The notes beneath the pieces are model-generated. The model saw only the letters and a program-made list of their open reading frames with translations. It had not been told where the DNA came from and did not search any database. From Janibacter indicus (GTDB lineage Bacteria; Actinomycetota; Actinomycetes; Actinomycetales; Dermatophilaceae), in assembly GCF_900176385.1 (NCBI RefSeq), contig NZ_FWXN01000003.1, positions 186,001-250,000 of the forward strand: a stretch of DNA of 64,000 nt, in the 5' to 3' direction. Positions 17,451 through 35,758 of the stretch are shown in pieces. A program made the position numbers and the translations under genes. The first letter of the stretch is position 1; each line of letters starts with the position of its first letter.

Positions 17451-17501
17451 TCAGTCCCGGCCCCAGGGCGTCACCCAGTCCGGGGTCGTGGGTGGCGTCA
17501 T
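17451..17501 (-). CDS. Possible 16-residue peptide coupled to rmuC
   Basis: Directly after rmuC, an ATG overlaps the rmuC stop (ATGA), preceded by GAGGAGGCGTC, an excellent ribosome site. It encodes MTPPTTPDWVTPWGRD and stops just before the twin palindromes. The ribosome site could be accidental, since it also encodes the Glu-Glu near the rmuC C-terminus. No function can be proposed. Confidence 0.3.
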   Translation of the reverse strand: MTPPTTPDWVTPWGRD

Positions 17502-18706: not shown

Positions 18707-18759
18707 GGCCCCAGCCAACCAGCGACCCCTGACAGCCGTGGGACGTCGGCTGCAGCCGA

Positions 18760-20550: not shown

Positions 20551-20614
20551 GCTCTCGTCGACCACCGACAACGCTGCGGGCGAAGGGAGATCGCCCCCGG
20601 GTAGCCTCGTGGCC

Positions 20615-21169
20615 ATGACGAGCCAGGAGCCCACCGAGGACGAGGTCAAGGCCGCGACGACCCGGCCCAACCTCGCGACGGAGGCCGGCCGGCTCGCCTT
20701 CATCAAGGTGCTCAACGCCCGCCTGCCCAAGAAGCGCCTCATCGCCCAGGGGCTGCTGCGCAGCGAGGACGGGCGCATCGCCCTGTGCGAGCTGGTCTAC
20801 AAGCGCGACCAGGACCTGCCCGGCGGCATCGTCGACCCGGGGGAGTCACCGGCCGACTGCGTCGTCCGTGAGGTCCGCGAGGAGCTGGGCCTCGAGGTCA
20901 CCGTCCGCGGCATGCTCGCGGTCAACTGGCTGCCGCCCTATCGCGGGTGGGACGACGCGCTGCTGTGCCTCTTCGACCTCGGGACGGTGCCGGAGTCCTT
21001 CCTCGACGACGCGGTCCTGCAGGCCCGCGAGATCAAGGCGGTCCACTGGGTCGACGTCGCCACAGTCGGCGAGCGGGTCGCGCCCTACACCGCTGCGATG
21101 ATCGCCGAGGCGGTCGCGGCCGACGCCACGCTCTACCTCGAGAACTCCACCGATCGAGTCGACCCGTGA
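20615..21169 (+). CDS. Nudix hydrolase
   Basis: A 184-residue Nudix protein with a complete box: G71, E77 and the R85-E86-V-R-E89-E90-L-G run, so the metal site is intact, unlike the decayed Nudix gene at 8.2 kb. It would cleave a nucleoside diphosphate linked to another moiety; the substrate is unknown. ATG at 20615 (MTSQEPTEDE) is preferred to an upstream ATG overlapping the divergent HNH gene. The stop overlaps the GTG of the next gene. Confidence 0.9.
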   Translation: MTSQEPTEDEVKAATTRPNLATEAGRLAFIKVLNARLPKKRLIAQGLLRSEDGRIALCELVYKRDQDLPGGIVDPGESPADCVVREVREELGLEVTVRGMLAVNWLPPYRGWDDALLCLFDLGTVPESFLDDAVLQAREIKAVHWVDVATVGERVAPYTAAMIAEAVAADATLYLENSTDRVDP

Positions 21170-21477
21170 GCGACCCCCTCGACGACCTCGAGCTGCCCCG
21201 CCGCCAGCCGACGAGCCGGACCCTCCTGTGGTCGCTGTGGGGTCGCGAGACGGTCAAGGACCTCGTGCTGCTGCTGGCCGCGCTGCCCGCTGCCTGCACC
21301 CTCCTCCTCGTCCCCGTCGTCGCCACCTCGGGTGGCTCGTGGCCGCGCCTGCTCGGTCTGCTCGTGCTCTTCGTCGCGCTCTGGCGGCTCGTGCGGGTGC
21401 TGCTGCGGCGCTGGGTCGCCGCCGGCGACGCCCGCGGCAGGGCCGACGAGGCCGGGGTTCCCCCTTCGCGCGGTTAG
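21166..21477 (+). CDS. Small membrane protein, DUF6343-like
   Basis: A 103-residue protein with a GTG start overlapping the Nudix stop. A polar N-terminus with PRRQPTSRTLLWSLWGRE precedes two hydrophobic segments (about residues 32-55 and 58-76) and an arginine-rich C-terminus. The layout suggests a two-helix membrane protein with both ends inside. No function is recognised. Confidence 0.7.
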   Translation: MSDPLDDLELPRRQPTSRTLLWSLWGRETVKDLVLLLAALPAACTLLLVPVVATSGGSWPRLLGLLVLFVALWRLVRVLLRRWVAAGDARGRADEAGVPPSRG

Positions 21478-21489
21478 ACTCCTGTCCCC

Positions 21490-22575
21490 GTGGCACTCTC
21501 CATCGGAATCGTCGGTCTCCCCAACGTCGGCAAGTCGACGATGTTCAACGCACTGACCAAGAACAACGTTCTCGCCGCGAACTACCCCTTCGCGACCATC
21601 GAGCCCAATGTCGGCGTCGTCCCGCTGCCGGACGCGCGGCTGGGCCGGCTCGCCGAGATCTTCGGCAGCGAGAAGATCCTGCCCGCGACGGTCTCCTTCG
21701 TCGACATCGCCGGCATCGTCCGTGGTGCGAGCGAAGGGGAGGGGCTGGGCAACAAGTTCCTCGCCAACATCCGTGAGTCCGACGCGATCTGCCAGGTGGT
21801 GCGCGCCTTCGTCGACGACGACGTGACGCATGTCGACGGCAAGATCGACCCCGCCTCCGACATGGAGACCATCAACACCGAGCTCGTGCTCGCCGACCTG
21901 CAGACCCTCGAGTCCGCGATCCCGCGGATGGAGAAGGAGGTCGAGGGCAAGAAGACCGACAAGGACGTCCTCGACACGGCGCTCGCCGCCCGCGGAGTCC
22001 TCGAGGCCGGCGACACCCTCTTCGCGAAGGGGGCCGCGGCCGGGGTCGACATGACCATCGCCTCCCAGCTCGGGCTGCTCACGACCAAGCCCTTCCTCTA
22101 CGTCTTCAACGTCGACGAGGACCAGCTGACCGACACCGACCTGCAGGCCCAGTGGCAGGCGCTCGTCGAGCCGGCCGAGGCGATCTTCTTGAACGCCAAG
22201 CTCGAGTCCGAGGTCGCCGAGCTCGACGACGAGGACGCCCGCGAGCTGCTCGAGGGTGTCGGCATCGACGAGCCGGGCCTGGACCAGCTGGCGCGCAAGG
22301 GCTTCAACACCCTCGGTCTGCAGACCTACCTCACCGCCGGCCCCAAGGAGTCGCGCGCGTGGACGATCCACAAGGGCGACACCGCGCCCAAGGCCGCCGG
22401 CGTCATCCACACCGACTTCGAGCGCGGCTTCATCAAGGCCGAGGTCGTCTCCTTCGAGGACCTCGACACGCTCGGCTCGATGGCCGAGGCGAAGGCCGCC
22501 GGCAAGGTGCGCATGGAGGGCAAGGACTACGTCATGGCTGATGGTGACGTGGTGGAGTTCCGCTTCAACGTGTGA
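21490..22575 (+). CDS. ychF: Obg-like ATPase YchF
   Basis: A 361-residue YchF/OLA1 P-loop protein that binds ATP rather than GTP and associates with ribosomes. G1 motif GLPNVGKST is at residues 9-17, the G3 DIAGIVRGASEGEGLGNKFL loop follows, and the C-terminal TGS-like domain ends [11 protein letters not shown]. The GTG start lies 12 bases after the preceding gene. The last 27 codons belong to an 81-bp sequence repeated at 31125-31205, so the 3' end of this gene was apparently supplied by the island that follows, with one residue changed (Ala-Asp here, Val-Asp in the far copy). Confidence 0.96.
   Translation: MALSIGIVGLPNVGKSTMFNALTKNNVLAANYPFATIEPNVGVVPLPDARLGRLAEIFGSEKILPATVSFVDIAGIVRGASEGEGLGNKFLANIRESDAICQVVRAFVDDDVTHVDGKIDPASDMETINTELVLADLQTLESAIPRMEKEVEGKKTDKDVLDTALAARGVLEAGDTLFAKGAAAGVDMTIASQLGLLTTKPFLYVFNVDEDQLTDTDLQAQWQALVEPAEAIFLNAKLESEVAELDDEDARELLEGVGIDEPGLDQLARKGFNTLGLQTYLTAGPKESRAWTIHKGDTAPKAAGVIHTDFERGFIKAEVVSFEDLDTLGSMAEAKAAGKVRMEGKDYVMADGDVVEFRFNV
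22495..22575 (+). repeat. Left direct repeat (attL candidate), ychF 3' end
   Basis: An 81-base segment covering the ychF 3' end and its stop codon. It matches 31125-31205 at 79 of 81 positions; the only differences are CT versus TC at 22538-22539. Outside the repeat the two contexts diverge at once on both sides. This is the pattern left by site-specific integration into the 3' end of a housekeeping gene. Confidence 0.88.
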
Positions 22576-22578
22576 AGC

Positions 22579-22784
22579 CGCAGGTCAGCGGCGGGTTAGG
22601 CCTTCAAGTCGGTTCCTGTCCTCGGTGCGGCGTGGCGATCGTCAAGGCGCGGCCACGTCGGCCGGGGCGACGCAACGGGTGGTGCTCGTCGTCCCGTCCT
22701 AGGCGGCATCGGAGGAGTGAGCCGAATCAGGCCGCCATCGAGGAGTATCTAGATGAGTGTGCCAGCGCGACATGCGCTTGGTGA
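22579..22784 (+). other. Zinc-ribbon-like reading frame at island left end
   Basis: A short open frame running from just after the ychF stop reads VGSCPRCGVAIVKARPRR and then a single further Cys in NGWCSSSRP. The CPRC pair resembles one knuckle of a zinc ribbon, with the second knuckle incomplete. No start codon or ribosome site stands out. It may be a degraded fragment of an element-encoded protein. Function unknown. Confidence 0.25.
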
Positions 22785-23387
22785 CCGATCTGCACCGTCC
22801 TGACCGAGGTCGACGTACTGATAGCCCCGAGCACCTATTACGCAGCCCAGACCCGAGCGCCGTCGGCCCGTTCGATCGGCGATGCCACGGTCGACGCGCT
22901 GAGCACAGCGACCTACGAGGCCAACGTCGGTGTCTACGTGGACAGAAGGGTCTGGAACGCCCTGCGTCGGCAGGGGCCACTAGATCGCACGCTGCACCAT
23001 CGAACGACGCATGCGAGCTCTGGGCCTGGCCGGCGCCGTACGCGGCAAGGTCAAGAAGCCCCACGATCGCGGCACGCGACGGGCAACCCGACACCCGCCC
23101 GACCTGCTCGAGTCCGCCTTCACCGCGACAGCCCCGATCGGGCGGTGACCTGCCGACAACGCCTCCGCATCCCTCTTCGGCCTCTACAAGACCGAGCTGC
23201 CCCCCCACCCCCCGGGGGTACCCGCGACGCTGTCCAACCGGCCACCGTCGAATGGGGCGACCGGTTCAACCACACCCGGCTCCAAGTTTGGTGCGACTAC
23301 CGACCCCTAGCCGAGTACGCGACCCTGCAACGCCTCACCCGCACGACCTGGCCGAGAACCCTAGGAGGAGAACTCAGCCTCCACTGA
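22785..23387 (+). pseudogene. IS3-family transposase (OrfB) remnant
   Basis: Scattered frames match an IS3-group OrfB: ICTVLTEVDVLIAPSTYYAA from about 22790, VGVYVDRRVWNALRRQG, then after a frameshift CTIERRMRALGLAGAVRGK and DLLESAFTATAP. The catalytic DDE core is missing; from about 23153 the sequence resumes with NASASLFGLYKTEL and, in another frame, TVEWGDRFNHTRL, typical of the OrfB C-terminus. At least two frameshifts, stops and a large internal deletion make it inactive. Confidence 0.75.
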
Positions 23388-23647
23388 AACCTGGGGCGGG
23401 TTCGCTGAGAGGGCCTTCACGCCCGACGGGCCGGCCAACCAACAGCGACCTGAACCCACCGAGCCTCCTTCAGACGGTGGCCCGGCCCCCTGTGCGCGCC
23501 TGCCATGCACGGGAGGCGGGCCCGTCCCCTTCTCCGCCTATGCTGATAGCCCGAAGAAGGCGCTGGCTCTAACTGACTAGAGCAAGACGGGGTGGTGACT
23601 GGAACTGTGCGACACGTCCTCGGCTATCGGCTACGTTCGACGCACAA
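23388..23647. other. Non-coding stretch before the defence gene
   Basis: About 260 bases between the IS3 remnant and the large ATPase gene. GAAACCTGGGGCGGGTT near 23388 resembles an IS end. A TACGTT at 23632-23637 could be a -10 element placing the transcript start only a few bases before the ATG at 23648, and no ribosome site is seen, so a near-leaderless message is possible. Nothing else was recognised. Confidence 0.35.
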
Positions 23648-26600
23648 ATGACTTCGCCGGCAGACATCCGTCCGAGTAGGGACGGCGACCAGTTCCACTA
23701 CACGTGGGCAGCGCGCCAGGCGCTACGTCTGTTGGACAGCTCCACCGGATTGCACGCTCTTTACGTGGAAGCGGTCGATCCAAGCGAGCACCGAACGAGG
23801 GCTGAGCCAGACCCGAGCAACAACGTCGCATGGCCTAGGTCCGAGGACCGTTCCTCGGCAAGTACGGGTGACGAGGTGATCGACCTCGCCGAGTACTGGG
23901 GCTCCAGTGACATCGACGACGCTGACCAAGTCATCTACCGACAGTTCAAGCACTCGACCGCGCGCGCGGACGAGCCTTGGACATTCTCATACCTGACTAA
24001 GACCCTCGCCGGCTTCGCAAAAAAATTCCGCTCGCTTCTGGTCGACCATCCGGAGGCTCTGCGCCGAATCCGGTTCGAGTTCATTACCAACCGCCCGGTC
24101 AGTGAATCAGCCCTAGCGATACTCGATGACCTAAGAAAGGGCCGGGCGTCCACCGCCGCTGACCCGGTCCGCCAGAGGCTGGCTGAATTTCTGGACGACG
24201 CCCACATCGCTGACCTCGCCAACGCCCTAGAGATCGACCGTCGGGCCCCCGCACTACTGAGGCAGCGTCAGCTCTTGGAGACCCAGGTTGCTGGGCTGCT
24301 CCCTGGCGCACCAGGGGACCAAGCGCTATTGCTGAAAGAGATGATCTCCAGCCGGGCGACGTCTATCTCGGGCGCCCAGCCCGCGGTCTTCCGCGAAGAC
24401 GTTTTGGCTGCACTAAAGACCTCAGATGATCAACTCCTGCCTGCCCCGAACCTCGTCCATAGTCCTGCCACTCCTCTCACCAGACGCCAGTTCACCCAGA
24501 TCGCCGACTTCGTATGCGCCGCTCAAGGAAGGCCCGTCGTGATTCACGGCCCGGGCGGAGTGGGCAAGAGCCTCTTGTCGATGGCGCTCCTTGACGTGGG
24601 TCCGACCGGCAGCGAAGCAGTTGTCTACGACTGCTTCGGGAATGGCTCGTACAGGCGTCCAAGTGGAGCGCGTCATCAGGCCAAACAAGCCCTTGTGCAA
24701 CTGTCTAACGAGCTCGCTTCGCGAGCCCTGTGCGACCCGCTAGTCCCGTCGGCCACTGCAGACGACACGGACTACGCGCGCGCCTTCCTCCGACGGCTCG
24801 AGAACGCCGCCACGACTCTCGCATCCACGTCACCAGACGCTCTCGTTATTCTGGTGATCGACGCGGCCGACAACGCCGCGATGATGGCGGCCGAGGTAGG
24901 GGACCGCCCATTCGTCACAGGACTGCTGCGCGAACAACTCCCCCCAAACGTAAGGCTGGTCGTCACGTGTCGCACCGAGAGGCGCGACCGACTGGACCTA
25001 CCGCCGGACCACCTGGACATTCCGCTTGAGGGTTTCGACCCAGATGAGACCCACGCACACTTGGAGCAAGCCTTCCCGGGCGTCGCCGCGGCAGACGCCG
25101 CCGAGTTCCACTCGCGCACGAGCCATAACCCACGGGTCCAAGCCACCGTGCTTCAGGCGACTGGCACCATCCAAGAAGCGCTGGACTGGCTGTCCCCCAA
25201 TCCTGTTTCAGCCGCCGCTGCCCTCGACTCAATTATCGAACGTCAGATAGCCGAGGTGCGCGACACCCACCACAGCGGCGCTGCCGAGATCGACCAGATC
25301 TGCATCGGTCTTGCAGCACTGCGACCGATGATCCCCATCCGCGTCCTCGCCGAACTGTCAGGTATCGAGGAGTCCTTGGTTCTCAGTTTCGTCACAGACT
25401 TGGGCCGGCCGCTGCTGATCGACAGCGGGACGGTCCAGTTCCGAGACGAACCCACCGAGACCTGGTTCCGTGAGCGCTACCGCCCCGCGGGCGCAAAGCT
25501 GGATGAGTTCCTAGCGCGACTCACGCCGATCGCTGACAGCGACGCCTACGTCGCTGCGTCACTCCCCGCCCTCCTCTTTGAGGCGAACCGCTTCGATGAC
25601 CTGGTGAAACTCGCCCTCTCAGACAGGGCATTACCCGACAACACACTTTCCCCAGACCGACGCAATGAGCTGCAGCGGCGAGAGATCTCACAGCAGAGGA
25701 CGCAGTTCGCGCTCAGTGCCGCTCTGCGCGGAGACCACGACTTCGCCGCGACTCAACTCGCCCTACGTCTCGGCGAGCTCACCGCGGGAAGGGCCAGGCG
25801 ACTCAAACTCGTCCGCGACAATACGGACCTCGCTGCCCGATTCCTCGACGCCCATGTATTGGAGCAACTTGTCGCAACGCGCGCTATCACGGGCAAGTGG
25901 CCGAGCTCCAACCTTCTGTACGAAGGCGCTCTACTTGCTGGCGCACCAGGTCAATCCGACCAAGCAAGGAACCGCCTCCGAAGCGCTGCAACCTGGGTCC
26001 GGACCTGGACCCAGCAAGCTGCAAGAGACGACGAACGCTCGAACGTGAGCGACCAGGACGTCCTGCAGATCGCCTGGGGGTTGCTAAACACCGACGGCGC
26101 CACTGCATGTATCGACTACCTTCTCCGCTGGAAGCCGCGAACACTCGCGTTCGACGTCGGCGTGCTCGTGGCGCGGCGTCTCGCTGACGCTGGCCGCGTG
26201 GCCGACCTGGAGTTACTAGCCCTGAATGCCCGAGGGAAGCACGCGAAGTTCGCCATCGCCCAGGTATGCGCCGAGCGAAACCTGGTCATGACACCAGAGA
26301 TCGTCAAGCACCTGCTCAAGCCTGCGTTGAAAAGGTCAAAGGCAGTCCGGCCGAGCCGACGAGCCGACGAGCAGTGGGGTTCGCCCTTGAACGAGCTTGT
26401 GCACGAGGGCCTGACCGCCATCGTCTGGCTACTTACCCGAGCTCTGGCCTTGCAGGCAATCTCGAAAGACGAAGCCCTCCGCGTCCTAAACTTCTACCTA
26501 CCCGAAAACATGGGTCACCGAACCGGCGAGTGGCACCATCGCGACCTATGGTCGCCGATTTTGGGGTTCGCGCTAAGAACCAGGCTGGAAGGGCGCGACC

Positions 26601-29600
26601 TCGTCGCCACTGAGATTGAGGGCCCAAAGGTCACCCAAGCCCGAGAACGCGAGCGCTACGAATCATCGAGGTCGCTGCGCGCCTACCGAGCCAACGTCGA
26701 GCCCCTAGTGGGGTGGGCGAACCTGTGGACAGCGCTGCAACTCGAGCCCAGCCAGGCGATGCTGTCTGAGTTCCGCGACAAGGCGACCACGTTCTTGAGC
26801 CGCGAAGGCAGGCACCGGTTCCACGATGAAGAGACCGATCAAGTCTACTTGAACATCACAACTTCAGTGATCGTCAGCGTTCTGGCGCAACACCCCACAA
26901 TTGTCGAGAGCGCCAATATCACCGCATTCTGTGAACGTAACCGACAAAGCCTTTGGCGCTCGACGATGATCCTGCTCGTCCAGCGAGCGGCTGCGTCGGA
27001 CGAGCTGAGCGGTGTGACGGCCGAGCTTGCTAGGCAGGTGCACGATGAGCTGCTGGTGGCCCGAGAGGACGCACACGAGAAGGCCAAGGACCTGGTGTCG
27101 CTCGCGCGGGCCACCTATGCCGCATCGCAAGATGAGGCCGAGGTGCATTTCCAAGCAGCGCTGGACATTGCCAACGCGATCGGTGACGACGCCTGGTCAC
27201 GATTCGCCGCGTTCCTCGACATCGCTCAGTTCGCGGGCGAGACCAGCGATGAGGAATCCGGTCGCGCGTACCGATTGGGACAAATTTCGGAGAATCTAGA
27301 GGAGTATCTTGGCGATTCCCTCGACCACGCACGAGTCGTCCGGGTCGCCGCCGGGCTGAGCGTCTCCGAAACGCTCGCTTTGGTCTCACGCTGGCGTGAC
27401 CGGCGAGTCGCTCCATTCACCCGTCTAGTCGAGCCGTTCTGCTCCGAACCGGTCAGCCTCCTCCAAGAGGACCCGGCTCTCGCCCTCGCCCTCCTGCCGT
27501 TCTGCGATCGTCACGCCGACGTCGTCACGCTCGCCGACGTACTTGAGTCGTCGACCTTGCCGCCAGAACCGGTCATCGTGGCGCTGCTCCGACAGTGGCG
27601 CGCTACACCTCCCCGAGGAGACGCCCTCGACCTTGCGCTCGGCCGTCTCGGAATCCCGAGGCGCACCATCGAAGACATCGACCCAACCCTCCTAACGGAC
27701 TGGACGACCGCGCTCGACGCGACTGCAGCCCCGGCCGTCGATGCGCCTTCCACGCCCTTGAATTTCACGGATATCGACTTCAGTTCGGTCGAGGGCTGGG
27801 TTGCTGCACTGGACCGAGCACAACTAAGCCGGGACCGACATGCCCTCTTCGACCATGTGGAGTCGATTGGGTACCGGGCGCCGGTCCTTGAGGCGTTCGG
27901 CAGTTGCCCGGCTGTGGACGTATGGCACCTCGCGGAATTCCTAGAGCATCTGGAGTCCGCTTCCCTGTCGATGGGGGCACAAAGCGCCCTCGATGGCGCA
28001 CTGACAGCCTTACTCGGCCGGTTGGGCTCCGACTACCTCTTGGTGCCCTATCGTTCCCTCGACGTCGCGAGGCTTCGAGCGATCACCGGGCATGCCACCG
28101 ACTACGGCCTGGTGGCCAGCCGAGCGGTAGCGGACAAGCCGTCGTTCGAGCCAGAAGAGGCGTTCGCACTGGCTGCAAAGCTGACTTCGCGCCTGACTCG
28201 TGCGCAGCGCCTCATCATCTTCGACGCAGCGGCTGACCTGTTCAACGACACCGCGCCCGCGGACTCCTGCGATGGCAACCACCCCGCCGGCTTGACCGCG
28301 GACTGCGACGACGTGACAGCGGTTGCCTGCCTGGTTTGGACTGCGCTCGGCGACCCCGCCGCTGCGACACGATGGCGCGCAGCCCATGCAGTCCATCTTC
28401 TGCTTTCGGTCGAGGCGCCGAGGCTTGCCGAGCGGTTGTGCGAAGTCGCGCTTGGCACAGTCGATACGACTGCCTTCAGAGACAGGAGGCTGCCGTTCTA
28501 CGACAGGCACGCAACCCAGTGGCTTCTCCTTGCTCTCTCGCGCGCATCGCTTGAGGCAAGCTCGCTGCCCAGCGTGGCAAAGTTTGCGCCGCTGTTCAGG
28601 CAAGTGTTGGAGGGCTCCCCACACGCGGTGATGAGCCCACTTGCTCGCGACGTCGTCCTTCGCCTGCGCGGTGCAGAGATCACACCGTACGAGCTAGTGG
28701 ACTGGCAATCGGGCATCGAGTCAGTAGGTCGGCCCGTAGGAGTGATGCGGCGACCAAGGTGGCGCCGGAACGCCGTCAGATCGTTTGCTGAGTTGAACGA
28801 GCTAGTCCAACGCAACGACGGCACTGGCTCCCTCGATGTCGCTGCCGACGATGGGGGCCCGGAGGACGACCTCGACCCGCTCGAAGACGCACTGGACGAG
28901 GGGGAGGGCGCATTTAGCTTCTTCTTCGACTTCCGGTCCTACTGGTGCGAAGCCCTCGCCACAGCGTTCGGCTTGACCGACACTTCGATCGAGAAGCTCG
29001 TCAACGAGGTGCTCGTCGACCGGTGGCAGGTCACGTCCCGCGGTCGATCTAAAGATGACCCCAGACACGAACTGCGGCTATACCCACGGGATTCCTACTC
29101 ACAAAAGTCCGAGTGGCCGTTGGAAGAGGACCTCGACTTCTACTTGGCCGTCCAAGGGCTATACGAGGTCGCTGGCAATCTCCTCAACCTTCTTCCGGTC
29201 GCCCAGACCTTCGACGAAGACGAGGTGACAGGAGAAACCGAGTACTCACGCTTCTTGGCGCATCACGTCCCCACGCGTGTCGACGGAAGGTGGCTGTCCG
29301 ACCGAGCGGACTCGGTGCCCTCACATTCGACGGTCCCTCGGCAGTCGGGGGCACTCAGTGGGATGCGCTCTGACTGGGCTACCTGGCGGTTCGAGGTCAA
29401 CGCCACAATGTTCCGTGAGGAGCTGCAGCCCAAGCCAGGCCGACTTTCGGTTTCCGCGTACAGGTCAACCCAGGATCGCGGCCGCAACGAGACGGTCCAC
29501 GTGACCAGCGCCCTAGTGGCGCCAACCAGCGCCCGATCCCTTCTGAGAGCGTTGCAGACTGCTCCGGAATTCAGGGCCTTTCGCCTCCCGAATGCGTCCG

Positions 29601-30082
29601 ACCGTGAGTTCTCATCGATGATCGCCGGGTTTGAGCTCAACGGGTGGATCGAAGAACACGGCTACTCAGAAGGTCTGGACTCGATGGACCCACTCGCTCG
29701 CGGTATACATTTTCCTCCCCAGCGACCCTCTTCGGCCGTGCGGGCACTTGCAGAACTCAGCCCCGACCCAGACATGCGCATCTGGCGAAACGCAGACGGG
29801 CACGTCGTCTTCACCTCGCATGTCTGGGACGAGTCCGACGGCGGCAGAGGCGTCCATGGCAGCTCCGGATACCAGCTGCTGATCGAACGGTCGAGTCTCT
29901 CCGCCCTCCTTCAGATGCTCGACCGATGGCTCATCGTGGAGGTGCAGATCAAGCGGCACGTCGACACAAGCGAGCGCCGCTTATACGGCGTTGAGACCGA
30001 CGACCATGAGTGGATGCCCTACCTCGAGCCCTACACGAAGTACTTCTTGATTGACGGTGAAGGATACATTCATGACCAGTGA
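23648..30082 (+). CDS. Giant DUF4297/Cap4-like nuclease-STAND ATPase, probable Avs-type defence protein
   Basis: A 2144-residue protein. Residues about 10-145 resemble the DUF4297/Cap4 dsDNA nuclease domain: GDQFHYTWAARQALRLL, then E41, D79 (VIDL) and Q99-F-K101, a PD-(D/E)XK-like arrangement with Gln in place of the usual Glu, then WTFSYLTKTLAGF. A STAND NTPase follows: P-loop GPGGVGKS at 301-308, YDCFGNGSYR at 327-336, Walker B ALVILVIDAAD ending at 408 and VVTCRTERR at about 438-446. The remaining 1600 residues are helix-rich with no recognised motif, as in Avs sensors that bind phage terminase or portal protein. An acidic linker lies near residue 1740. The layout recalls DUF4297-STAND (AVAST type III-like) proteins; the subtype is not assigned. 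Confidence 0.8.
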   Translation: MTSPADIRPSRDGDQFHYTWAARQALRLLDSSTGLHALYVEAVDPSEHRTRAEPDPSNNVAWPRSEDRSSASTGDEVIDLAEYWGSSDIDDADQVIYRQFKHSTARADEPWTFSYLTKTLAGFAKKFRSLLVDHPEALRRIRFEFITNRPVSESALAILDDLRKGRASTAADPVRQRLAEFLDDAHIADLANALEIDRRAPALLRQRQLLETQVAGLLPGAPGDQALLLKEMISSRATSISGAQPAVFREDVLAALKTSDDQLLPAPNLVHSPATPLTRRQFTQIADFVCAAQGRPVVIHGPGGVGKSLLSMALLDVGPTGSEAVVYDCFGNGSYRRPSGARHQAKQALVQLSNELASRALCDPLVPSATADDTDYARAFLRRLENAATTLASTSPDALVILVIDAADNAAMMAAEVGDRPFVTGLLREQLPPNVRLVVTCRTERRDRLDLPPDHLDIPLEGFDPDETHAHLEQAFPGVAAADAAEFHSRTSHNPRVQATVLQATGTIQEALDWLSPNPVSAAAALDSIIERQIAEVRDTHHSGAAEIDQICIGLAALRPMIPIRVLAELSGIEESLVLSFVTDLGRPLLIDSGTVQFRDEPTETWFRERYRPAGAKLDEFLARLTPIADSDAYVAASLPALLFEANRFDDLVKLALSDRALPDNTLSPDRRNELQRREISQQRTQFALSAALRGDHDFAATQLALRLGELTAGRARRLKLVRDNTDLAARFLDAHVLEQLVATRAITGKWPSSNLLYEGALLAGAPGQSDQARNRLRSAATWVRTWTQQAARDDERSNVSDQDVLQIAWGLLNTDGATACIDYLLRWKPRTLAFDVGVLVARRLADAGRVADLELLALNARGKHAKFAIAQVCAERNLVMTPEIVKHLLKPALKRSKAVRPSRRADEQWGSPLNELVHEGLTAIVWLLTRALALQAISKDEALRVLNFYLPENMGHRTGEWHHRDLWSPILGFALRTRLEGRDLVATEIEGPKVTQARERERYESSRSLRAYRANVEPLVGWANLWTALQLEPSQAMLSEFRDKATTFLSREGRHRFHDEETDQVYLNITTSVIVSVLAQHPTIVESANITAFCERNRQSLWRSTMILLVQRAAASDELSGVTAELARQVHDELLVAREDAHEKAKDLVSLARATYAASQDEAEVHFQAALDIANAIGDDAWSRFAAFLDIAQFAGETSDEESGRAYRLGQISENLEEYLGDSLDHARVVRVAAGLSVSETLALVSRWRDRRVAPFTRLVEPFCSEPVSLLQEDPALALALLPFCDRHADVVTLADVLESSTLPPEPVIVALLRQWRATPPRGDALDLALGRLGIPRRTIEDIDPTLLTDWTTALDATAAPAVDAPSTPLNFTDIDFSSVEGWVAALDRAQLSRDRHALFDHVESIGYRAPVLEAFGSCPAVDVWHLAEFLEHLESASLSMGAQSALDGALTALLGRLGSDYLLVPYRSLDVARLRAITGHATDYGLVASRAVADKPSFEPEEAFALAAKLTSRLTRAQRLIIFDAAADLFNDTAPADSCDGNHPAGLTADCDDVTAVACLVWTALGDPAAATRWRAAHAVHLLLSVEAPRLAERLCEVALGTVDTTAFRDRRLPFYDRHATQWLLLALSRASLEASSLPSVAKFAPLFRQVLEGSPHAVMSPLARDVVLRLRGAEITPYELVDWQSGIESVGRPVGVMRRPRWRRNAVRSFAELNELVQRNDGTGSLDVAADDGGPEDDLDPLEDALDEGEGAFSFFFDFRSYWCEALATAFGLTDTSIEKLVNEVLVDRWQVTSRGRSKDDPRHELRLYPRDSYSQKSEWPLEEDLDFYLAVQGLYEVAGNLLNLLPVAQTFDEDEVTGETEYSRFLAHHVPTRVDGRWLSDRADSVPSHSTVPRQSGALSGMRSDWATWRFEVNATMFREELQPKPGRLSVSAYRSTQDRGRNETVHVTSALVAPTSARSLLRALQTAPEFRAFRLPNASDREFSSMIAGFELNGWIEEHGYSEGLDSMDPLARGIHFPPQRPSSAVRALAELSPDPDMRIWRNADGHVVFTSHVWDESDGGRGVHGSSGYQLLIERSSLSALLQMLDRWLIVEVQIKRHVDTSERRLYGVETDDHEWMPYLEPYTKYFLIDGEGYIHDQ

Positions 30083-30869
30083 GAACGACCCTGTCCTTGA
30101 GCTCGGAATGAGCCTCGCCGACGCCCTCGACACAAGCGACATCATCGGACGATGGATGGCTCACCATCTCGCAGACCTCATCACCCGGTCCGAGGCTGAC
30201 CCTAACGATCAAGACCTTTCGACTGAGACGCGCGAGGTCATCTTGAAATTTTGGGAACACAAGGCTGGTGGACGATTCAAAAGAACGCCTTTAGATCATG
30301 TGCAGCCCGTCTTCGCCGCCCTTGCACGGCTTGAGCCCGATCCGCCACCATGGGCACACTTCCGGGCACTCTCCCCCGACGGTCTGCCCTCGACCGACGA
30401 CTTGGCACGCTCCTCCCTTCTCGCAGCCGCGTGCGATATGGACCGAGACTTCGGGCGCCTCGTGCGGCTGGCCGTCGCCCTCGCCGGCAAAGAGGCGCTA
30501 GATCGTGAAGAACCTTGGGTTGTTGCGGCAACGGCAGTTGCCGAAACGGAGGTAGACCACGCGCTGCAACAATTTCAGAAGTGGATCCATGCCAACCGCC
30601 GACACGCAGCGCTGCGGCACGACCTCGTTCCCCCCTGCGAGCTGCTCGAGCAAAGCAGTGAAGTGGCGAAGCACGCAAACTCGACCAGTGCGGATAAACA
30701 CGGGCAACCGAGCTCAGATGATGAAGTGCTCAGCGTAGCTCTCAAGGCGATGATCTCTCAGTGCACGAAACTGCTCGAGCGCATGGATCACCTGATCGCT
30801 GCGCCCGACCCAGTGCCTGGGCCAATGACTTCAGTGGCCGTTGACGACACGAGCGAGGGCCGGGTGTAG
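30072..30869 (+). CDS. Partner protein of the STAND ATPase, function unknown
   Basis: A 265-residue protein whose ATG at 30072 overlaps the end of the giant ATPase gene by 11 bases, with GAAGGA nine bases upstream, so the two are translationally coupled. It has no signal peptide or membrane segment. Notable segments are DIIGRWMAHHLADLI near residue 25 and REVILKFWEHKAGG near 60, then a helical middle and a polar, low-complexity region around residues 200-225 before a C-terminal helix. I do not recognise the family. Strict coupling suggests a subunit, regulator or accessory factor of the defence protein. Confidence 0.7.
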   Translation: MTSENDPVLELGMSLADALDTSDIIGRWMAHHLADLITRSEADPNDQDLSTETREVILKFWEHKAGGRFKRTPLDHVQPVFAALARLEPDPPPWAHFRALSPDGLPSTDDLARSSLLAAACDMDRDFGRLVRLAVALAGKEALDREEPWVVAATAVAETEVDHALQQFQKWIHANRRHAALRHDLVPPCELLEQSSEVAKHANSTSADKHGQPSSDDEVLSVALKAMISQCTKLLERMDHLIAAPDPVPGPMTSVAVDDTSEGRV

Positions 30870-31124
30870 TCGGTGCACTGAAACCGGATCTCACAAGGAC
30901 CCAACAAGGCTCAATCAGTCCATCGACGAAACGCCGCAGGAGCGCAGCTCAATCTTCGCTCATGCGAACGAGGCGTCCTGATGACCGATGCCTGGTCGGT
31001 CGAGGGCAGACCAGTCTCCCGCCCTCAAGTAACCGGCCGAGGGGACTGTCAGAGTGTGCTCGGCGTGAGCCGTCCTCCTCGGTCGCGTTGGTGACCAGGT
31101 ATCCCGTTGTGGGCGGCGTGCAGC
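30870..31124. other. Island right-end non-coding stretch
   Basis: About 255 bases between the partner gene and the right repeat. No convincing coding frame, RNA gene or transposase fragment was found. Base composition is intermediate between island and host. Confidence 0.4.
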
Positions 31125-31205
31125 GCCGCCGGCAAGGTGCGCATGGAGGGCAAGGACTACGTCATGGTCGATGGTGACGTGGTGGAGTTCCGCTTCAACG
31201 TGTGA
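31125..31205 (+). repeat. Right direct repeat (attR candidate), orphan ychF 3' end
   Basis: An 81-base copy of the ychF 3' end with its stop codon, detached from any ychF body; 79 of 81 bases match 22495-22575. It is probably the original chromosomal end of ychF, displaced when the island inserted. Confidence 0.88.
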
Positions 31206-31367
31206 GCTGACCCCACCCTGTGGATGCCCGTCGACCATCGTGGTCGGCGGGGCCCTCGCCTTCTCTCGGAGCATGCGGCTGTTGACGCGAACCCGACAGA
31301 ATTGGACCGGAATGGTCGGGCGGGCGTCATGTCATCGGAACGAGAGTGGATGGCGAAGGGAGCCACC

Positions 31368-32234
31368 ATGATCCAGATCCTCAATCGGCTGATCGATGAG
31401 ATCGAGCGCCGCGTCGGCGAGGACATCGACATCGATGCGCTCGCCGCGTCGATGGGCACGACGGGCTATCACGCGCGTCGCATGTTCTCGTCGTTGGCGG
31501 GCATGCCTGTCTCCGAGTACGTGCGCCGGCGGCGGATGACTGTCGCGGCGGCGGATGTGGTCGGTGGTGAGGACCTGCTGACGATCGCCGTGCGGTACGG
31601 GTACGGATCCGTCGAGGCCCTCGGGCGCGCGTTCCGTTCCGTGCATGGCGTGAGCCATGGCGACGTTCGTCGTGATGGCGGCCCCCTTCGCACTCAACCC
31701 ACCCTCAGGTTCCGCCTGACCGTCGAAGGGAGCGTCCCCATGGATGCCCGGATCATCGAACGACCCGCTTTCCGCTTGATCGGCCACGCCGCGCGTGTGC
31801 CGCTGGTCCACATTGGGGTCAACCCGCACATCCAGCAGCACATCGCGTCATTGCCGGCCGCGGAGCACCAGCGCCTCAAGGATCTCGGCAATTCGGATCC
31901 GAGCGGGATCCTCCAGGTGAGCGCTGACGTCGACCCCGACTATCGCGAGGGGAGCGATCTGACCTACCTGCACGGTGTCGCGGTCGAGGGCGACATCGAG
32001 ATGCCGGGTGACCTCGACGTGATCGATCTCGAAGCGGGCGAGTGGGTCGTGTTCCGTACCTCGGGTCCGCACCCGGCGGCATTGCAGGAGGCGTACGCGG
32101 CCTCGGCATCGGAGTGGTTCCCGTCGAACCCGTGGCGGCTGCGTCCGGGGCCATCGATCGTGGCGGTTCTCGAGCACGCCGAGGACTTCAGCACGGCGAC
32201 GTGCGAGTTGTGGTTCCCGATCGAACGCGGCTGA
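31368..32234 (+). CDS. AraC-family regulator with GyrI-like effector domain
   Basis: A 288-residue protein. Residues about 1-110 form a two-helix-turn-helix AraC/XylS DNA-binding domain (IDALAASMGTTGYHARRMFS, then LTIAVRYGYGSVEALGRAF), and residues about 125-288 form a GyrI-like/SOUL small-molecule-binding domain starting DARIIERPAFRLIGHAARV. This Rob/BmrR-like layout is typical of regulators that sense lipophilic drugs and activate efflux. ATG at 31368 has AAGGGAGCCACC upstream; earlier in-frame starts lack one. It contains or adjoins three copies of the CGAAGGG heptamer, so it is host rather than island sequence. Confidence 0.88.
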   Translation: MIQILNRLIDEIERRVGEDIDIDALAASMGTTGYHARRMFSSLAGMPVSEYVRRRRMTVAAADVVGGEDLLTIAVRYGYGSVEALGRAFRSVHGVSHGDVRRDGGPLRTQPTLRFRLTVEGSVPMDARIIERPAFRLIGHAARVPLVHIGVNPHIQQHIASLPAAEHQRLKDLGNSDPSGILQVSADVDPDYREGSDLTYLHGVAVEGDIEMPGDLDVIDLEAGEWVVFRTSGPHPAALQEAYAASASEWFPSNPWRLRPGPSIVAVLEHAEDFSTATCELWFPIERG

Positions 32235-32289
32235 GTCGTGGCACCCGAAGCGGACAGTCCTTGCTCGTCCCCGCAGCCCCTGCCCGGGT

Positions 32290-32901
32290 CTACACGATCG
32301 GTTGATCGCGGGGCGCACGCGCCGCGAAGTACTCCTCGATCCGCTCCTCGTCCCACTGGTGCGCCTCGCGCAGTCCCTCGGCGAGCATCGCGAGGTAGGC
32401 CGGTCGGGGAGCGGTGTGCGGCACCGTGTCCATGCCGTGCGGTGCGGTGAAGGTGAGCATCGGCAGCCCCTCGTGCTCGCCCACCCGCACGATCGTCTCG
32501 TACCTGCCCGGTCCCGCGCTGTGGCGCTCGCCGGGCAGTCCTGTGCGCAGCACCTCCTCGAGCGGGTCGTCCTCGATCGCCGATCGGCGCATCTCCTGGT
32601 TGGCCACGTCGACGAACTGACCGATCGTCAGCAGGTAGGCCCGGGCCGCGGTCTCGCCGGGGGTGTCGTGGTCGTAGAAGGCGACCCCTCCGCCCCAGGT
32701 CTTCGACTCACCGGCGAAGTACAGGCTCCCCGGAAGGGTCACCGCGTGATCGGCCGTCGGCAAGGTCCGATCGCGCGCCCCGGCATAGGTCCTCGTCGAT
32801 CCGGGCGGCGTGCCACCGGCGAGGTAGCAGCCAAGACGGCGGCGGGACATGTTGGAGCCATAGCTGACGTACCAGAGGTGCGAAGGGAGCATCCCTCCCA
32901 T
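32290..32901 (-). CDS. Gamma-glutamylcyclotransferase-fold protein
   Basis: A protein of about 203 residues starting LWYVSYGSNMSRRRLGCYLAGG, the YGSN signature of the gamma-glutamylcyclotransferase (AIG2-like) fold. Actinobacterial relatives are often mislabelled histone deacetylase. The middle holds SLYFAGESKTWGGGVAFYD and GQFVDVANQEM. Substrate is unknown. Starts at 32901 or 32892 are both possible. It is divergent from the gene at 32983. Confidence 0.75.
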   Translation of the reverse strand: MGGMLPSHLWYVSYGSNMSRRRLGCYLAGGTPPGSTRTYAGARDRTLPTADHAVTLPGSLYFAGESKTWGGGVAFYDHDTPGETAARAYLLTIGQFVDVANQEMRRSAIEDDPLEEVLRTGLPGERHSAGPGRYETIVRVGEHEGLPMLTFTAPHGMDTVPHTAPRPAYLAMLAEGLREAHQWDEERIEEYFAARAPRDQPIV

Positions 32902-32982
32902 TATCGTCCGCGGCCTCCGACCGGAGACACCGGCCCCGCGATCGCACTCGACCGTCACGCGCTCTGCGGCACAATCGAGCCC

Positions 32983-33822
32983 GTGCCGCACCTGCTGGAC
33001 ATCGGATCCCGGAAGTTCTGGACGCTCACCGGTAGATCCGTCGACCTCGGCGGCGCCGAGAGCTGGCTCGACGGCCCCGTGAGCGGCTCGCCTCGGGTGG
33101 CCTCCGACTGGCTGGCAGCCGAGGCCGAGCGCCACGGCGGCTCGGTGGCCGACGCGGACCCGATTGCCGGTCTGCTGCCGTCGATGTCGCTCCTCGACGG
33201 CCCGGGCTTCGACGCGACCCGGCTGCACCCGGCGGTGCGTGACTTCTACGAGCACACGGCCTCGTGGCAGATGGAGGTCTGGTCGTCCTGGTCCCCGCTC
33301 TTCTGGCCGGGCGGGGAGCTCGTCGCCCGGCTGTGGGGGAGGAGGGTCGAGCAGCTGGCCCTGCCGATGCGCCCGCTCGACGTCGCCCACGGCATGGACA
33401 GCGTCGTGACCCCGATCCTCGACGGGCAGGGCGAGCAGGTCGCCGCCGCGTGGACCCGCGCCCTGCGCGCCACCGGCCGCACCGTCTTCAGCGGGGCCTA
33501 CGCGACGCGGACCCTCCCCGGGGCCGACCGCCCGAGCGTGCACGTGACCTTTCCCCTCGAGTCGGGCAACCTCCAGGTCTTCCTGCGGCCCTCCATCGTC
33601 GACGGCGGTGGCTTCCTCCTCGAGTCGCTCGGTGGGCGGTTTGGCGAGGACGGCGCCTACGTCGTCGTCCGTGGGCCACGCAGCCACGCGGCCAAGGTGC
33701 CGTTGCGGGAGACCTTCCACATGTACCTCGACCCGCAGGGGGTGCTGCGCACCGATCACGTGCTGCGCATGTGGGACCGTCCCGCCCTTCGCCTGCACTA
33801 CAAGCTGGAGCCAGCGGCATGA
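32983..33822 (+). CDS. Conserved protein of unknown function, coupled to CrtA-like gene
   Basis: A 279-residue soluble protein from a GTG start (VPHLLDIGSRKFWTLTG). It contains aromatic-rich DFYEHTASWQMEVWSSWSPLFWPGG and a C-terminal part with TFHMYLDPQGVLRTDHVLRMW. No signal peptide, and I do not recognise the family. It overlaps the next gene by four bases (ATGA), so the pair is probably co-translated and may share a pathway. Confidence 0.7.
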   Translation: MPHLLDIGSRKFWTLTGRSVDLGGAESWLDGPVSGSPRVASDWLAAEAERHGGSVADADPIAGLLPSMSLLDGPGFDATRLHPAVRDFYEHTASWQMEVWSSWSPLFWPGGELVARLWGRRVEQLALPMRPLDVAHGMDSVVTPILDGQGEQVAAAWTRALRATGRTVFSGAYATRTLPGADRPSVHVTFPLESGNLQVFLRPSIVDGGGFLLESLGGRFGEDGAYVVVRGPRSHAAKVPLRETFHMYLDPQGVLRTDHVLRMWDRPALRLHYKLEPAA

Positions 33823-34529
33823 TCCACAGCTTCCACCTGGCGCAGGTGCCCGCCCGCGTCGGAGCGGCAGTACTTCTGCGGCCGCCCACCCCGGCAACCG
33901 TCCTCGGTCTCGACCACCTCGAGTGCCTCTCCCTCATGCGGCTCGGGGCGCCCGTCGTCTCGCCCGAGCGGCTCCAGCTGACCCGACTGGCGGTCTTCGC
34001 CCAGTGGCGCGACGAGGATGCTCTCGTCCGCTTCCTCGAGCGTGACCCGCTGGGTCAGCGGCTCGAGACCGGCTGGCACGTGCGGCTGGAGTTCGTGCGG
34101 CGCTGGTCGACGATCGCGGCCTTCGACGGGCTGCCCGCCCGCACCGGCACCCTCGAGCAGGACGAGCCCGTCGTGGCGATCACGCTCGCCCGCATGAAGA
34201 TCCCCGAGATCCCGCGGTTCCTCCACCACGGCCGCCCGGTCGAGCGTCTCGTCCGCGACCACCCGGGGGTGACGCTGGCCGCGGCGGCGCTGCGCCCGCC
34301 GCGGACGATCTCGACGTTTTCGATCTGGCGCAGCGTGCGCGAGATGGTCGAGCTGGTCCACGGCCGCTCCGAGGTGCCCGAGCCGGACCGGCACTCGGCA
34401 GCGATGCGCGAGCGGGAGCGGCGCGACTTCCACCACGAGTTCGCGACCTATCGATTCCGTCCGCTGTCCGAGCACGGCTCGTGGCTGGGGCGGTCGGACC
34501 TCGTGCCCTGGTCGGACCCGGCCAGCTGA
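33819..34529 (+). CDS. Spheroidene monooxygenase (CrtA)-like protein
   Basis: A 236-residue protein resembling CrtA-type spheroidene monooxygenases: an N-terminal HLAQVPARVG stretch, FAQWRDEDALVRFLER, and MKIPEIPRFLHHGRPVERLVRDHPG with TISTFSIWRSVREM towards the end. Proteins of this kind are widespread in actinobacteria lacking spheroidene, and no carotenoid genes are nearby, so a real role in carotenoid oxidation is doubtful. The start overlaps the upstream stop. Confidence 0.7.
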   Translation: MIHSFHLAQVPARVGAAVLLRPPTPATVLGLDHLECLSLMRLGAPVVSPERLQLTRLAVFAQWRDEDALVRFLERDPLGQRLETGWHVRLEFVRRWSTIAAFDGLPARTGTLEQDEPVVAITLARMKIPEIPRFLHHGRPVERLVRDHPGVTLAAAALRPPRTISTFSIWRSVREMVELVHGRSEVPEPDRHSAAMRERERRDFHHEFATYRFRPLSEHGSWLGRSDLVPWSDPAS

Positions 34530-34623
34530 GCCGGTCGCCGACCTCGAGCCGCGCGGTCGTTCCGTGGAAGAAGGGACCCTGCTCCGCCGACGCCGTCGGC
34601 CCCTGCTCCGTCGTCTCGTCCAT
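34530..34623 (-). pseudogene. N-terminal remnant of rifampin ADP-ribosyltransferase (arr)
   Basis: Read leftward from ATG 34621-34623, the peptide GPFFHGTTARLEVGDRL matches the start of Arr enzymes (GPFYHGTKANLAIGDLL in known members). The match ends abruptly at the stop codon of the CrtA-like gene, leaving about 30 residues. The catalytic core is absent, so this fragment cannot inactivate rifamycins. A deletion that joined the CrtA-like gene to the arr start is the simplest history. Confidence 0.65.
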
Positions 34624-34657
34624 GGCCTCACGCCAGGTCCGCCGGTAGCGTCAGGTC

Positions 34658-35758
34658 ATGGACCGCCGGACAGCCCCCCGCGCCGCCACGCTCGTCGCGG
34701 CGGTGGCCCTGCTCGTCGGGTGCTCGGGGGAGGCGACGGACCGCGGCACCTCCGGGTCCGGCACGACGACGCCGGGCACACCCCCTTCGTCATCGTCCGG
34801 CAGCGCACCGACCGACGTCGTCACCGACCTCGACGCCCCGTGGTCCATCACGATCGACGACGAGACGACGCTCGTCAGCGAGCGCGACTCCGGCCGCGTC
34901 CTCGAGCTCACCGACGACGGCGGCACCCGGGAGGTCGGGGCCGTCGAGGGCGTCTCCGCGGGCGGCGAAGGGGGCCTGCTCGGCCTCGCCGTGCACGACG
35001 ACTACCTCTACACCTACTTCACGAGCGCCGACGACAACCGCGTCGTGCGCCACGAGCTGACCGGCGAGCCGGGCTCGCTCGGGCTCGGCGACGCCGAGAC
35101 GATCCTCGAGGGGATCCCGTCGGCGAGCTTCCACAACGGTGGCCGGATCGCCTTCGGGCCCGACGACATGCTCTACGTGACGACCGGTGACGCCGGCGAG
35201 ACCGACCGCGCCCAGGACCCCGAGAGCCTCGCCGGCAAGATCCTGCGGCTGACGCCCGAGGGCGAGGTGCCCGAGGACAATCCCTTCGACGACTCGCTCG
35301 TCTGGACCCTCGGCCACCGCAACCCGCAGGGCATCGCCTGGGACGACGACGGGACGATGTATGCCAGCGAGTTCGGCCAGGACACGTGGGACGAGCTCAA
35401 CGTCATCGAGGCCGGCGACAACTACGGCTGGCCGACCGTCGAGGGCACCGCCGACGACGACCGGTTCACCGACCCCGTGCAGCAGTGGTCGCCCGACGAC
35501 GCGAGCCCGAGCGGCATCGCGATCGACGACGGCAGCATCTGGATCGCCAACCTGCGCGGCGAGCGGCTGCGCGAGGTGCCCCTCGACGACGTGACGACGT
35601 CCACCGAGCACCTCGTCGGCGAGCACGGGCGGCTGCGAGACGTGGCCGTCGCGACCGACGGCTCGCTGTGGGTGCTCACCAACAACACCGACGGTCGCGG
35701 CGATCCCGGCGATGGCGACGACCGCATCCTGCGCGTGGACGTCGTCAGGAAGGCCTGA
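34658..35758 (+). CDS. PQQ-dependent sugar dehydrogenase-like lipoprotein
   Basis: A 366-residue lipoprotein: signal segment TLVAAVALLVGC with the lipidated cysteine at 22, a Ser/Thr/Gly-rich linker to about residue 50, then a six-bladed beta-propeller of the glucose/sorbosone dehydrogenase family. Typical segments are GLLGLAVH, FHNGGRIAFGPDDMLYVTTGD, GHRNPQGIAW and the AGDNYGWPTVEG motif. Such proteins oxidise aldoses using PQQ outside the membrane, though many homologues lack a proven substrate. Its end overlaps the convergent gene by 14 bases. Confidence 0.88.
   Translation: MDRRTAPRAATLVAAVALLVGCSGEATDRGTSGSGTTTPGTPPSSSSGSAPTDVVTDLDAPWSITIDDETTLVSERDSGRVLELTDDGGTREVGAVEGVSAGGEGGLLGLAVHDDYLYTYFTSADDNRVVRHELTGEPGSLGLGDAETILEGIPSASFHNGGRIAFGPDDMLYVTTGDAGETDRAQDPESLAGKILRLTPEGEVPEDNPFDDSLVWTLGHRNPQGIAWDDDGTMYASEFGQDTWDELNVIEAGDNYGWPTVEGTADDDRFTDPVQQWSPDDASPSGIAIDDGSIWIANLRGERLREVPLDDVTTSTEHLVGEHGRLRDVAVATDGSLWVLTNNTDGRGDPGDGDDRILRVDVVRKA

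What the first reader, a model, noticed from the sequence alone, without database searches (positions are those of the whole stretch)
23648..30869. Two-gene Avs-like defence module with DUF4297/Cap4-type nuclease and a coupled partner
A 2144-residue protein combines an N-terminal nuclease-like domain (E41, D79, Q99-F-K101) with a STAND P-loop (GPGGVGKS, 301-308) and about 1600 residues of unassigned helical sensor. A 265-residue protein of unknown family overlaps its end by 11 bases. Known Avs proteins recognise phage terminase or portal and then cut DNA. The actinobacterial origin, the QxK variant and the obligately coupled downstream partner could define an undescribed subtype.
Basis: partly seen in the sequence, partly recalled or inferred. 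Interest (0 to 1): 0.88.

Follow-up and report, generated by a model that had tools for sequence, protein, structure and literature searches.

The report
Actinobacterial Avs3 anti-phage gene pair
The two overlapping genes are a distant actinobacterial version of a known bacterial immune system, Avs3, that senses a phage protein and then cuts DNA; the pair is not a new subtype, although the job of its small second protein is still an open question.

Summary
In detail: the 2144-residue frame (23648-30082), the 265-residue frame (30072-30869), the 11-base overlap and the named residues are there. The large protein is Avs3a (PADLOC E=0; full-length alignment to solved SeAvs3, 8dgc, E=2.4e-277). 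The 'unknown' partner is Avs3b, second gene of the same AVAST type 3 system (PADLOC 5.5e-24). The 'QxK variant' is the Avs3 norm (Q 85/85, K 84/85 aligned Avs3a). Both proteins fall below NCBIfam's curated cut-offs: a divergent member. In the tree, 26 of 28 actinobacterial rows form one clade holding the window. Avs3b is recognisable in 76 of 80 loci (best 80 of 275); in the other four the contig ends. Divergent Avs3a relatives without Avs3b exist. Avs3b is predicted all-helical and matched no solved fold. The pair lies on a low-GC island of about 8.6 kb at the 3' end of ychF, bounded by an 81-bp direct repeat; a sibling genome shows a nearly empty site. Most likely mechanism: sensing of a phage packaging protein such as TerL, STAND assembly, Cap4-like DNA cutting; Avs3b an accessory subunit (inferred).

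The parts
23648..30082 (+). avs3a: 2144-aa Cap4-like nuclease + STAND NTPase + sensor/C-terminal region
   Evidence: PADLOC Avs3a E=0, 1370 bits; NCBIfam NF041816 1465.6 bits against a cut-off of 2800; PDB 8dgc SeAvs3 E=2.4e-277
23648..24082 (+). N-terminal nuclease segment (residues 1-145); E41 at 23768-23770, D79 at 23882-23884, Q99-F-K101 at 23942-23950
   Evidence: residues 1-145 alone match SeAvs3 E=9.9e-23; residue counts. Pfam Cap4 profile PF14130 itself not matched
24530..25075 (+). STAND/NACHT NTPase core (residues 295-476); P-loop GPGGVGKS 301-308 at 24548-24571; D405 and D408 (Walker-B-like: recalled label)
   Evidence: NACHT 1.2e-5, AAA_16 3.2e-7, NPHP3_N 8.4e-6; K307, D405, D408 85/85
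25076..30079 (+). rest of Avs3a (residues 477-2144): sensor repeats and C-terminal region
   Evidence: aligned to SeAvs3 to residue 1678 and again 1742-2142; identity profile
30072..30869 (+). avs3b: 265-aa all-helical (predicted) partner, ATG 11 bases inside the end of avs3a
   Evidence: PADLOC Avs3b 5.5e-24; NCBIfam NF041817 77.7 bits against a cut-off of 200; AlphaFold2 model mean pLDDT 82.8
22495..22575 (+). 3' end of ychF = left copy of an 81-bp direct repeat (att-like); 23-bp core 22550-22572
   Evidence: ychF by PF06071
31125..31205 (+). right copy of the 81-bp repeat (98%); 23-bp core 31180-31202
   Evidence: up to 2 mismatches the core occurs only twice in the whole genome
22576..31205 (.). 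8.6-kb island carrying avs3ab; GC 0.63 over 24001-32000 against 0.71-0.75 in the stretches next to it
   Evidence: composition; nearly empty site in sibling L123
22785..23034 (.). relic of a repeated IS3-type element, by likeness to related copies in two sibling genomes
   Evidence: the ORFs over the related stretches in L156 and L157 match rve + HTH_21; no Pfam match in the window ORFs themselves

Best explanation
This is an AVAST type 3 (Avs3) anti-phage system of an actinobacterial lineage. Avs3a is an NLR-like sensor. Its C-terminal two-thirds bind an essential phage packaging protein (most likely the large terminase subunit, TerL) made during infection. Binding lets the STAND domain assemble (a tetramer in SeAvs3), which pairs the N-terminal Cap4-like nuclease domains and switches on double-strand DNA cutting of phage and host, aborting the infection. 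Avs3b is translationally coupled to Avs3a and most likely acts as a dedicated accessory subunit that tunes or stabilises Avs3a, not as the core sensor or cutter. Shown here: homology of both proteins, conserved catalytic and P-loop residues, overlapping genes, island setting. Inferred: TerL as ligand, assembly, cutting, translational coupling, and everything about Avs3b's role.
For: Full-length similarity to SeAvs3 and PADLOC/NCBIfam Avs3a and Avs3b. E41, D79, Q99, K307, D405 and D408 in 85/85 and K101 in 84/85. The mechanism of SeAvs3 (viral protein binds the sensor, tetramerisation, nuclease dimers) is stated in passages that I saw of PMC11291478 and, in part, PMC12198126; sensing of TerL, portal or Ksap1 by Avs1-4 is stated in a passage of PMC12931631. 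Which of these SeAvs3 binds (TerL) is recalled. Avs3b in 76 of 80 loci, start inside the end of Avs3a in 67 of 73 with my start rule, co-divergence r=0.89 in 78 loci. No PDB chain matches the Avs3b profile below E 0.03, so the SeAvs3 entry seems to hold no Avs3b chain, which fits an accessory rather than essential structural role.
Against: Both proteins are far below NCBIfam's curated cut-offs (1465.6 of 2800; 77.7 of 200). The middle sensor is weakly conserved towards the Klebsiella Avs3a (0.16-0.22 identity over residues 841-1560), so ligand identity cannot be carried over safely. The Pfam Cap4 profile does not match. Recognition of actinophage TerL is untested. The co-divergence is expected of any two adjacent co-inherited genes.
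Confidence: 0.82

Rival explanations
1. The actinobacterial clade is a functional subtype: same nuclease and STAND parts, but the sensor has been retuned to a different phage protein (portal, capsid or an actinophage-specific protein).
For: Identity to the Klebsiella Avs3a is 0.16-0.22 over residues 841-1560 against 0.38-0.47 over 241-840; 26 of 28 actinobacterial rows form one clade (FastTree support 100).
Against: The sensor still aligns with SeAvs3 over nearly its whole length, and sensor identity is also low within the actinobacterial rows (0.21-0.32 over 841-1440), as expected of a fast-evolving recognition surface for one ligand.
Confidence: 0.12
2. The pair is an inactive or decaying island gene set.
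For: The left part of the island holds a decayed IS-like relic; promoter-like and terminator-like sites are not above shuffles.
Against: Both long frames are intact and every checked catalytic and P-loop residue is kept. The sigma-70 scan does not cover other promoter types.
Confidence: 0.05
3. Avs3b is essential for signalling (for example an obligate cofactor for assembly), so the pair only works together.
For: Avs3b in 76 of 80 loci, the other four ending at contig edges; in 394 genomes of the class Avs3b occurs in exactly the six that hold a long Avs3a match.
Against: Avs3a relatives without Avs3b exist (L027, L029, L149, L150, L152, viral L153), and SeAvs3 seems to have been solved without it (no Avs3b-like chain in the PDB). 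In 3 of the 76 loci (L050, L090, L108) only short or split pieces of Avs3b were found.
Confidence: 0.3

Closest known systems
AVAST type 3 / Avs3 (SeAvs3, PDB 8dgc; PADLOC PDLC02167 Avs3a and PDLC02168 Avs3b; NCBIfam NF041816, NF041817)
   Same: Gene order, overlap, N-terminal nuclease with E, D, Q-x-K, STAND P-loop, sensor over nearly full length, Avs3b partner
   Different: 30% identity to the Klebsiella member, below NCBIfam cut-offs, extra residues against SeAvs3 within about 43-75 and 1679-1741, actinobacterial clade
Brevibacterium permense homologue (L031)
   Same: 69% identity in the best segment, matched over residues 1-2144, same 11-base overlap; closest row in the tree
   Different: Different host; the exact 23-bp ychF core is not in its fetched locus
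HerA-DUF4297 and CBASS Cap4 nucleases
   Same: Same PD-(D/E)XK nuclease class as the SeAvs3 nuclease domain, by the Dali comparison reported in PMC11291478 (passage seen)
   Different: No Avs-type sensor (recalled); PF14130 does not match the window protein
Partnerless Avs3a-like proteins of plasmids (Janthinobacterium L027, Agrobacterium L149 and L150, Cupriavidus L029, Tistrella L152)
   Same: Match the N-terminal and C-terminal thirds of the Avs3a profile, and all but L150 the middle third
   Different: No Avs3b found in the fetched stretch; more divergent

Membership tests
AVAST type 3 (Avs3) | Avs3a-like protein over its full length | tested here: met
   PADLOC 1370 bits, best stretch 7-1677 plus a second; 8dgc over 6-1678 and 1742-2142
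AVAST type 3 (Avs3) | Avs3b encoded directly downstream | tested here: met
   PADLOC Avs3b 5.5e-24, 11-base overlap
AVAST type 3 (Avs3) | Curated NCBIfam equivalog cut-off for Avs3a and Avs3b | tested here: not met
   1465.6 against 2800 bits and 77.7 against 200 bits. These models are typed 'equivalog', so I file the pair as a divergent member of the system and not as an equivalog of the NCBIfam proteins
AVAST type 3 (Avs3) | Cap4-like PD-(D/E)XK nuclease residues | tested here: met
   E41, D79, Q99, K101 aligned with SeAvs3 and conserved in 84-85 of 85
AVAST type 3 (Avs3) | STAND NTPase with P-loop | tested here: met
   NPHP3_N 26.5 bits against a cut-off of 24.8 (met); NACHT 25.7 against 26.7 and AAA_16 31.5 against 32.6 (just missed); K307 85/85
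AVAST type 3 (Avs3) | Activation by phage TerL and DNA cutting | not testable with these tools
   Needs expression and phage assays
Pfam PF14130 Cap4 nuclease | Match to the Pfam profile | tested here: not met
   No match at E up to 1, none in the own genome (no control rang either, so that search alone is weak)
A new Avs subtype | Architecture or partner not covered by models of described Avs types | tested here: not met
   Both genes are covered by existing Avs3a/Avs3b models

The most novel reading that the evidence does not exclude
Avs3b is a dedicated regulatory subunit that docks on defined parts of Avs3a, and a divergent group of Avs3a relatives does without it (lost or never gained). 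The parts of Avs3a that differ between partner-bearing and partnerless deep relatives (about residues 401-550, 701-950 and 1901-2050), together with weak residual co-divergence at 401-550 and 1701-1950, would mark the docking surfaces. Avs3 would then be a two-component receptor with a licensing or locking protein that the solved SeAvs3 structure lacks.
Probability: 0.25. Interest if true: 0.5.

Novelty: new member of a known kind. Interest (0 to 1): 0.3.

Why it matters
It places Avs3 in a well-supported actinobacterial clade, where it could be tested against actinophages, and turns 'a partner of unknown family' into a sharp question: why is Avs3b kept next to nearly every Avs3a in the sampled main group, which spans nine phylum-level groups, yet missing from a divergent group and apparently absent from the solved structure? 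It also documents the 3' end of ychF as an insertion site that carries such a system.

Tried and rejected
Rejected: 'undescribed subtype', 'QxK variant' and 'partner of unknown family'. Rejected after test: my own idea that partnerless relatives share only the nuclease/NTPase half; segment profiles show that they match the C-terminal third too. Rejected: free-standing Avs3b in two plasmids; in Qipengyuania L147 and Fibrella L148 it lies directly behind C-terminal remnants of Avs3a. Led nowhere: Foldseek of the Avs3b model against PDB and BFVD (best E 0.53 and 0.60); Pfam on 70 Avs3b proteins (six families, one member each, best E 0.0021); Avs3b profile against PDB (best E 0.031, ribosome recycling factor); tblastn of Avs3a against 50,697 phage records (no match); promoter/terminator scan; PADLOC on ten cargo proteins of sibling ychF sites (only a MerR-like protein matching mad1). 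Weak: residual co-divergence over 75 loci (partial r at most 0.29, no significance test, also positive at 1101-1350, near zero or negative at 701-950) and the segment contrast (three deep partner-bearing against five partnerless proteins, not independent; other segments go the opposite way). The placement of L152 beside L026 and the join of L029 with L150 are flagged as long-branch joins, and the trees are midpoint-rooted. Genus of the host was not identified. The papers that first described Avs3 are not in the library (two DOIs tried), so their content is recalled where used; a full-text search for Avs3b in this open-licence library found no paper, which does not show that nothing is in print.
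Full report
Observation. The window's frame 23648-30082 (+) encodes 2144 residues and the ATG frame 30072-30869 encodes 265 residues; the second start lies 11 bases inside the end of the first gene.

Identity of the large protein. PADLOC names it Avs3a (E=0, 1370 bits), NCBIfam gives Avs3a at 1465.6 bits (curated cut-off 2800), and among PDB sequences the only match up to E=1 is SeAvs3, 8dgc (E=2.4e-277, residues 6-1678 and 1742-2142). Residues 1-145 alone match SeAvs3 at 9.9e-23, with E, D and Q-x-K aligned. Pfam finds only the NTPase (NPHP3_N above its cut-off, AAA_16 and NACHT just below); its Cap4 profile PF14130 does not match. The link between the SeAvs3, Cap4 and DUF4297 nucleases rests on a Dali comparison reported in PMC11291478 (passage seen).

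Identity of the partner. The 265-residue protein is Avs3b (PADLOC 5.5e-24; NCBIfam 77.7 bits, cut-off 200), and all 70 Avs3b proteins of alignment A3 match the same PADLOC model. The two-gene arrangement is therefore the described AVAST type 3 layout; a Klebsiella plasmid is annotated so in its record, also with an overlap. A search for the word Avs3b found no paper in the library, so I found no published function for it there.

Is the Q-x-K a variant? No. In 85 aligned Avs3a proteins E41, D79, Q99, K307, D405 and D408 are 85/85 and K101 is 84/85 (R in L108). The 85 are the window, L018 and L019, eight plasmid rows and 74 of the 80 genome contigs rows; dropped before the count were nine frames under 1700 residues (L020, L024, L030, L059, L078, L080, L093, L106, L107) and the duplicate stretches L015-L017.

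How widespread, and is the partner obligate? In 394 genomes of the class, protein P0001 matched 10: six with long matches, one fragment (G207, no partner found) and three short NTPase-like matches. The Avs3b profile, searched in 394 genomes of the class, matched exactly the six with long matches. A scan of the GTDB species genomes gave 275 relatives, of which the tool kept 80. Of these 80 loci, 76 have an Avs3b match; in the other four (L078, L080, L081, L104) the contig ends 2-938 bases after the Avs3a frame, which in L078, L080 and L081 is itself cut short. In 3 of the 76 (L050, L090, L108) only short or split pieces of Avs3b were found. For the remaining 73, with a start-choice rule of my own, 67 starts lie inside the end of Avs3a, one lies 4 bases after it, and five follow split or cut Avs3a frames. 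Of the 18 plasmid records found I fetched 14: seven have Avs3b (L021-L026, L028) and seven do not (L027, L029, L030, L149-L152), two of the latter (L030, L151) being interrupted by insertion sequences. All seven match the N-terminal and C-terminal thirds of the Avs3a profile (in L030 and L151 in separate frames), and all but L150 the middle third. Of two viral contigs found, L153 is of the partnerless kind and L154 has the partner. In a 36-row tree four of the five partnerless rows form one supported clade; the fifth, L152, joins L026; the program flags this join and that of L029 with L150 as long-branch joins, and the root is only a midpoint. The partner is thus near-universal in the main Avs3 group, in a sample that favours close relatives, and absent from divergent relatives; whether it was lost there or never gained is open. 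Two plasmids that match Avs3b but not Avs3a in the record searches carry C-terminal remnants of Avs3a right before it.

Phylogeny. In a FastTree tree of 85 Avs3a proteins, 26 actinobacterial rows (23 named, the window, two Rhodococcus plasmids) form one clade (support 100), and the window is sister to Brevibacterium permense (70% over 2047 columns). Two further actinobacterial rows, L018 and L019 from genomes of the same class, lie outside it, in the deep group with L026; both have Avs3b. Identity of the window to 54 rows outside the actinobacterial and deep groups is highest in the nuclease and NTPase parts (0.37 over 1-120, 0.40-0.44 over 241-720) and low in the mid-sensor (0.14-0.24 over 841-1560).

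What Avs3b might do. AlphaFold2 with 70 sequences gives an all-helical model (mean pLDDT 82.8, pTM 0.71). Foldseek finds no convincing relative in the PDB (best E 0.53) or BFVD (best E 0.60). The Avs3b profile matches no PDB chain below E 0.03, so the SeAvs3 entry seems to hold none. Avs3a and Avs3b distances correlate at r=0.89 over 78 loci (largest of 999 permutations 0.12), but adjacent co-inherited genes would do so anyway. Segment profiles of Avs3a score higher in the three deep partner-bearing proteins than in the five partnerless ones at 401-550, 701-950 and 1901-2050; they score lower at 101-250 and, apart from L152, at 501-650. Over 75 loci residual co-divergence is weakly positive at 401-550 (0.19), 1101-1350 (0.15-0.17) and 1701-1950 (0.28-0.29), and not at 701-950 (-0.05, -0.09) or 1901-2050 (0.03). 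I take this only as a pointer to possible docking surfaces.

Setting. GC is 0.63 over 24001-32000 against 0.71-0.75 over 4001-22000 and 32001-46000; other parts of the window are also lower (0.65 at 2001-4000, 0.66-0.70 over 54001-62000), so GC alone proves nothing. An 81-bp direct repeat (98%), the 3' end of ychF, bounds 22495-31205, and its 23-bp core occurs only twice in the genome. Of 13 sibling stretches compared, L123 has the ychF end followed after 32 bases by the sequence homologous to window 32287 onward: a nearly empty site. Window 31206-32286, with an AraC/GyrI-like gene, is also missing there, so a second insertion or a longer one is possible. In nine other siblings 0.5-8.4 kb of different DNA lies between the two; of ten proteins scanned there, seven match Pfam (luciferase-like, pyridine nucleotide-disulphide oxidoreductase, MerR, two Band_7, Na/H exchanger, short-chain dehydrogenase) and three do not. 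Some of this may be old gene order and not insertion. L125, L127 and L130 have extra 21-23-bp copies of the ychF end. Three viral contigs hold the core: L142 and L144 within the ychF 3' end, with a capsid and a portal gene further along, and L143 without ychF similarity, 23 bases after a tyrosine-integrase gene. This fits integrase-driven insertion at ychF; I recognised no integrase on the island itself. Pfam on 18 and PADLOC on 10 neighbouring ORFs show no second defence system (an RmuC matches the DRT-associated RmuC model and a NUDIX protein matches PDC-S07 in part).

Mechanism. From SeAvs3 and Avs1-4 (passages in PMC11291478, PMC12198126 and PMC12931631): a viral protein binds the sensor, the STAND part assembles, nuclease domains pair and DNA is cut. 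For this locus, homology and residue conservation are shown; ligand, assembly, cutting and Avs3b's role are inferred.

Verdict. A real, intact and divergent member of a known system. Its interest lies in its lineage and in open questions about Avs3b, not in a new kind.

Noticed in passing
window 22495-22575 and 31125-31205; L125, L127, L130; L142, L143, L144: The 3' end of ychF looks like an integrase attachment site: 81-bp repeat around the Avs3 island, extra 21-23-bp copies downstream of ychF in three siblings, and a viral contig (L143) with the bare 23-bp core next to a tyrosine integrase.
   Followed up: partly
L027, L029, L149, L150, L152, L153: Divergent Avs3a-like proteins, on proteobacterial plasmids and one viral contig, without Avs3b.
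   Followed up: partly
L147 11646-12681; L148 10770-12621: Avs3b genes behind truncated C-terminal remnants of Avs3a on Qipengyuania and Fibrella plasmids.
   Followed up: yes
L018, L019: Two actinobacterial Avs3a genes with Avs3b that fall outside the main actinobacterial clade, in a deep group with a Rhizobium plasmid protein.
   Followed up: no
window 31206-32286: A stretch with an AraC/GyrI-like gene that is also absent from the sibling site L123; perhaps a separate insertion.
   Followed up: no
window 43507-43614: TPP riboswitch (60 bits).
   Followed up: no
window 22785-23034: Relic of a repeated IS3-type element at the left of the island.
   Followed up: partly
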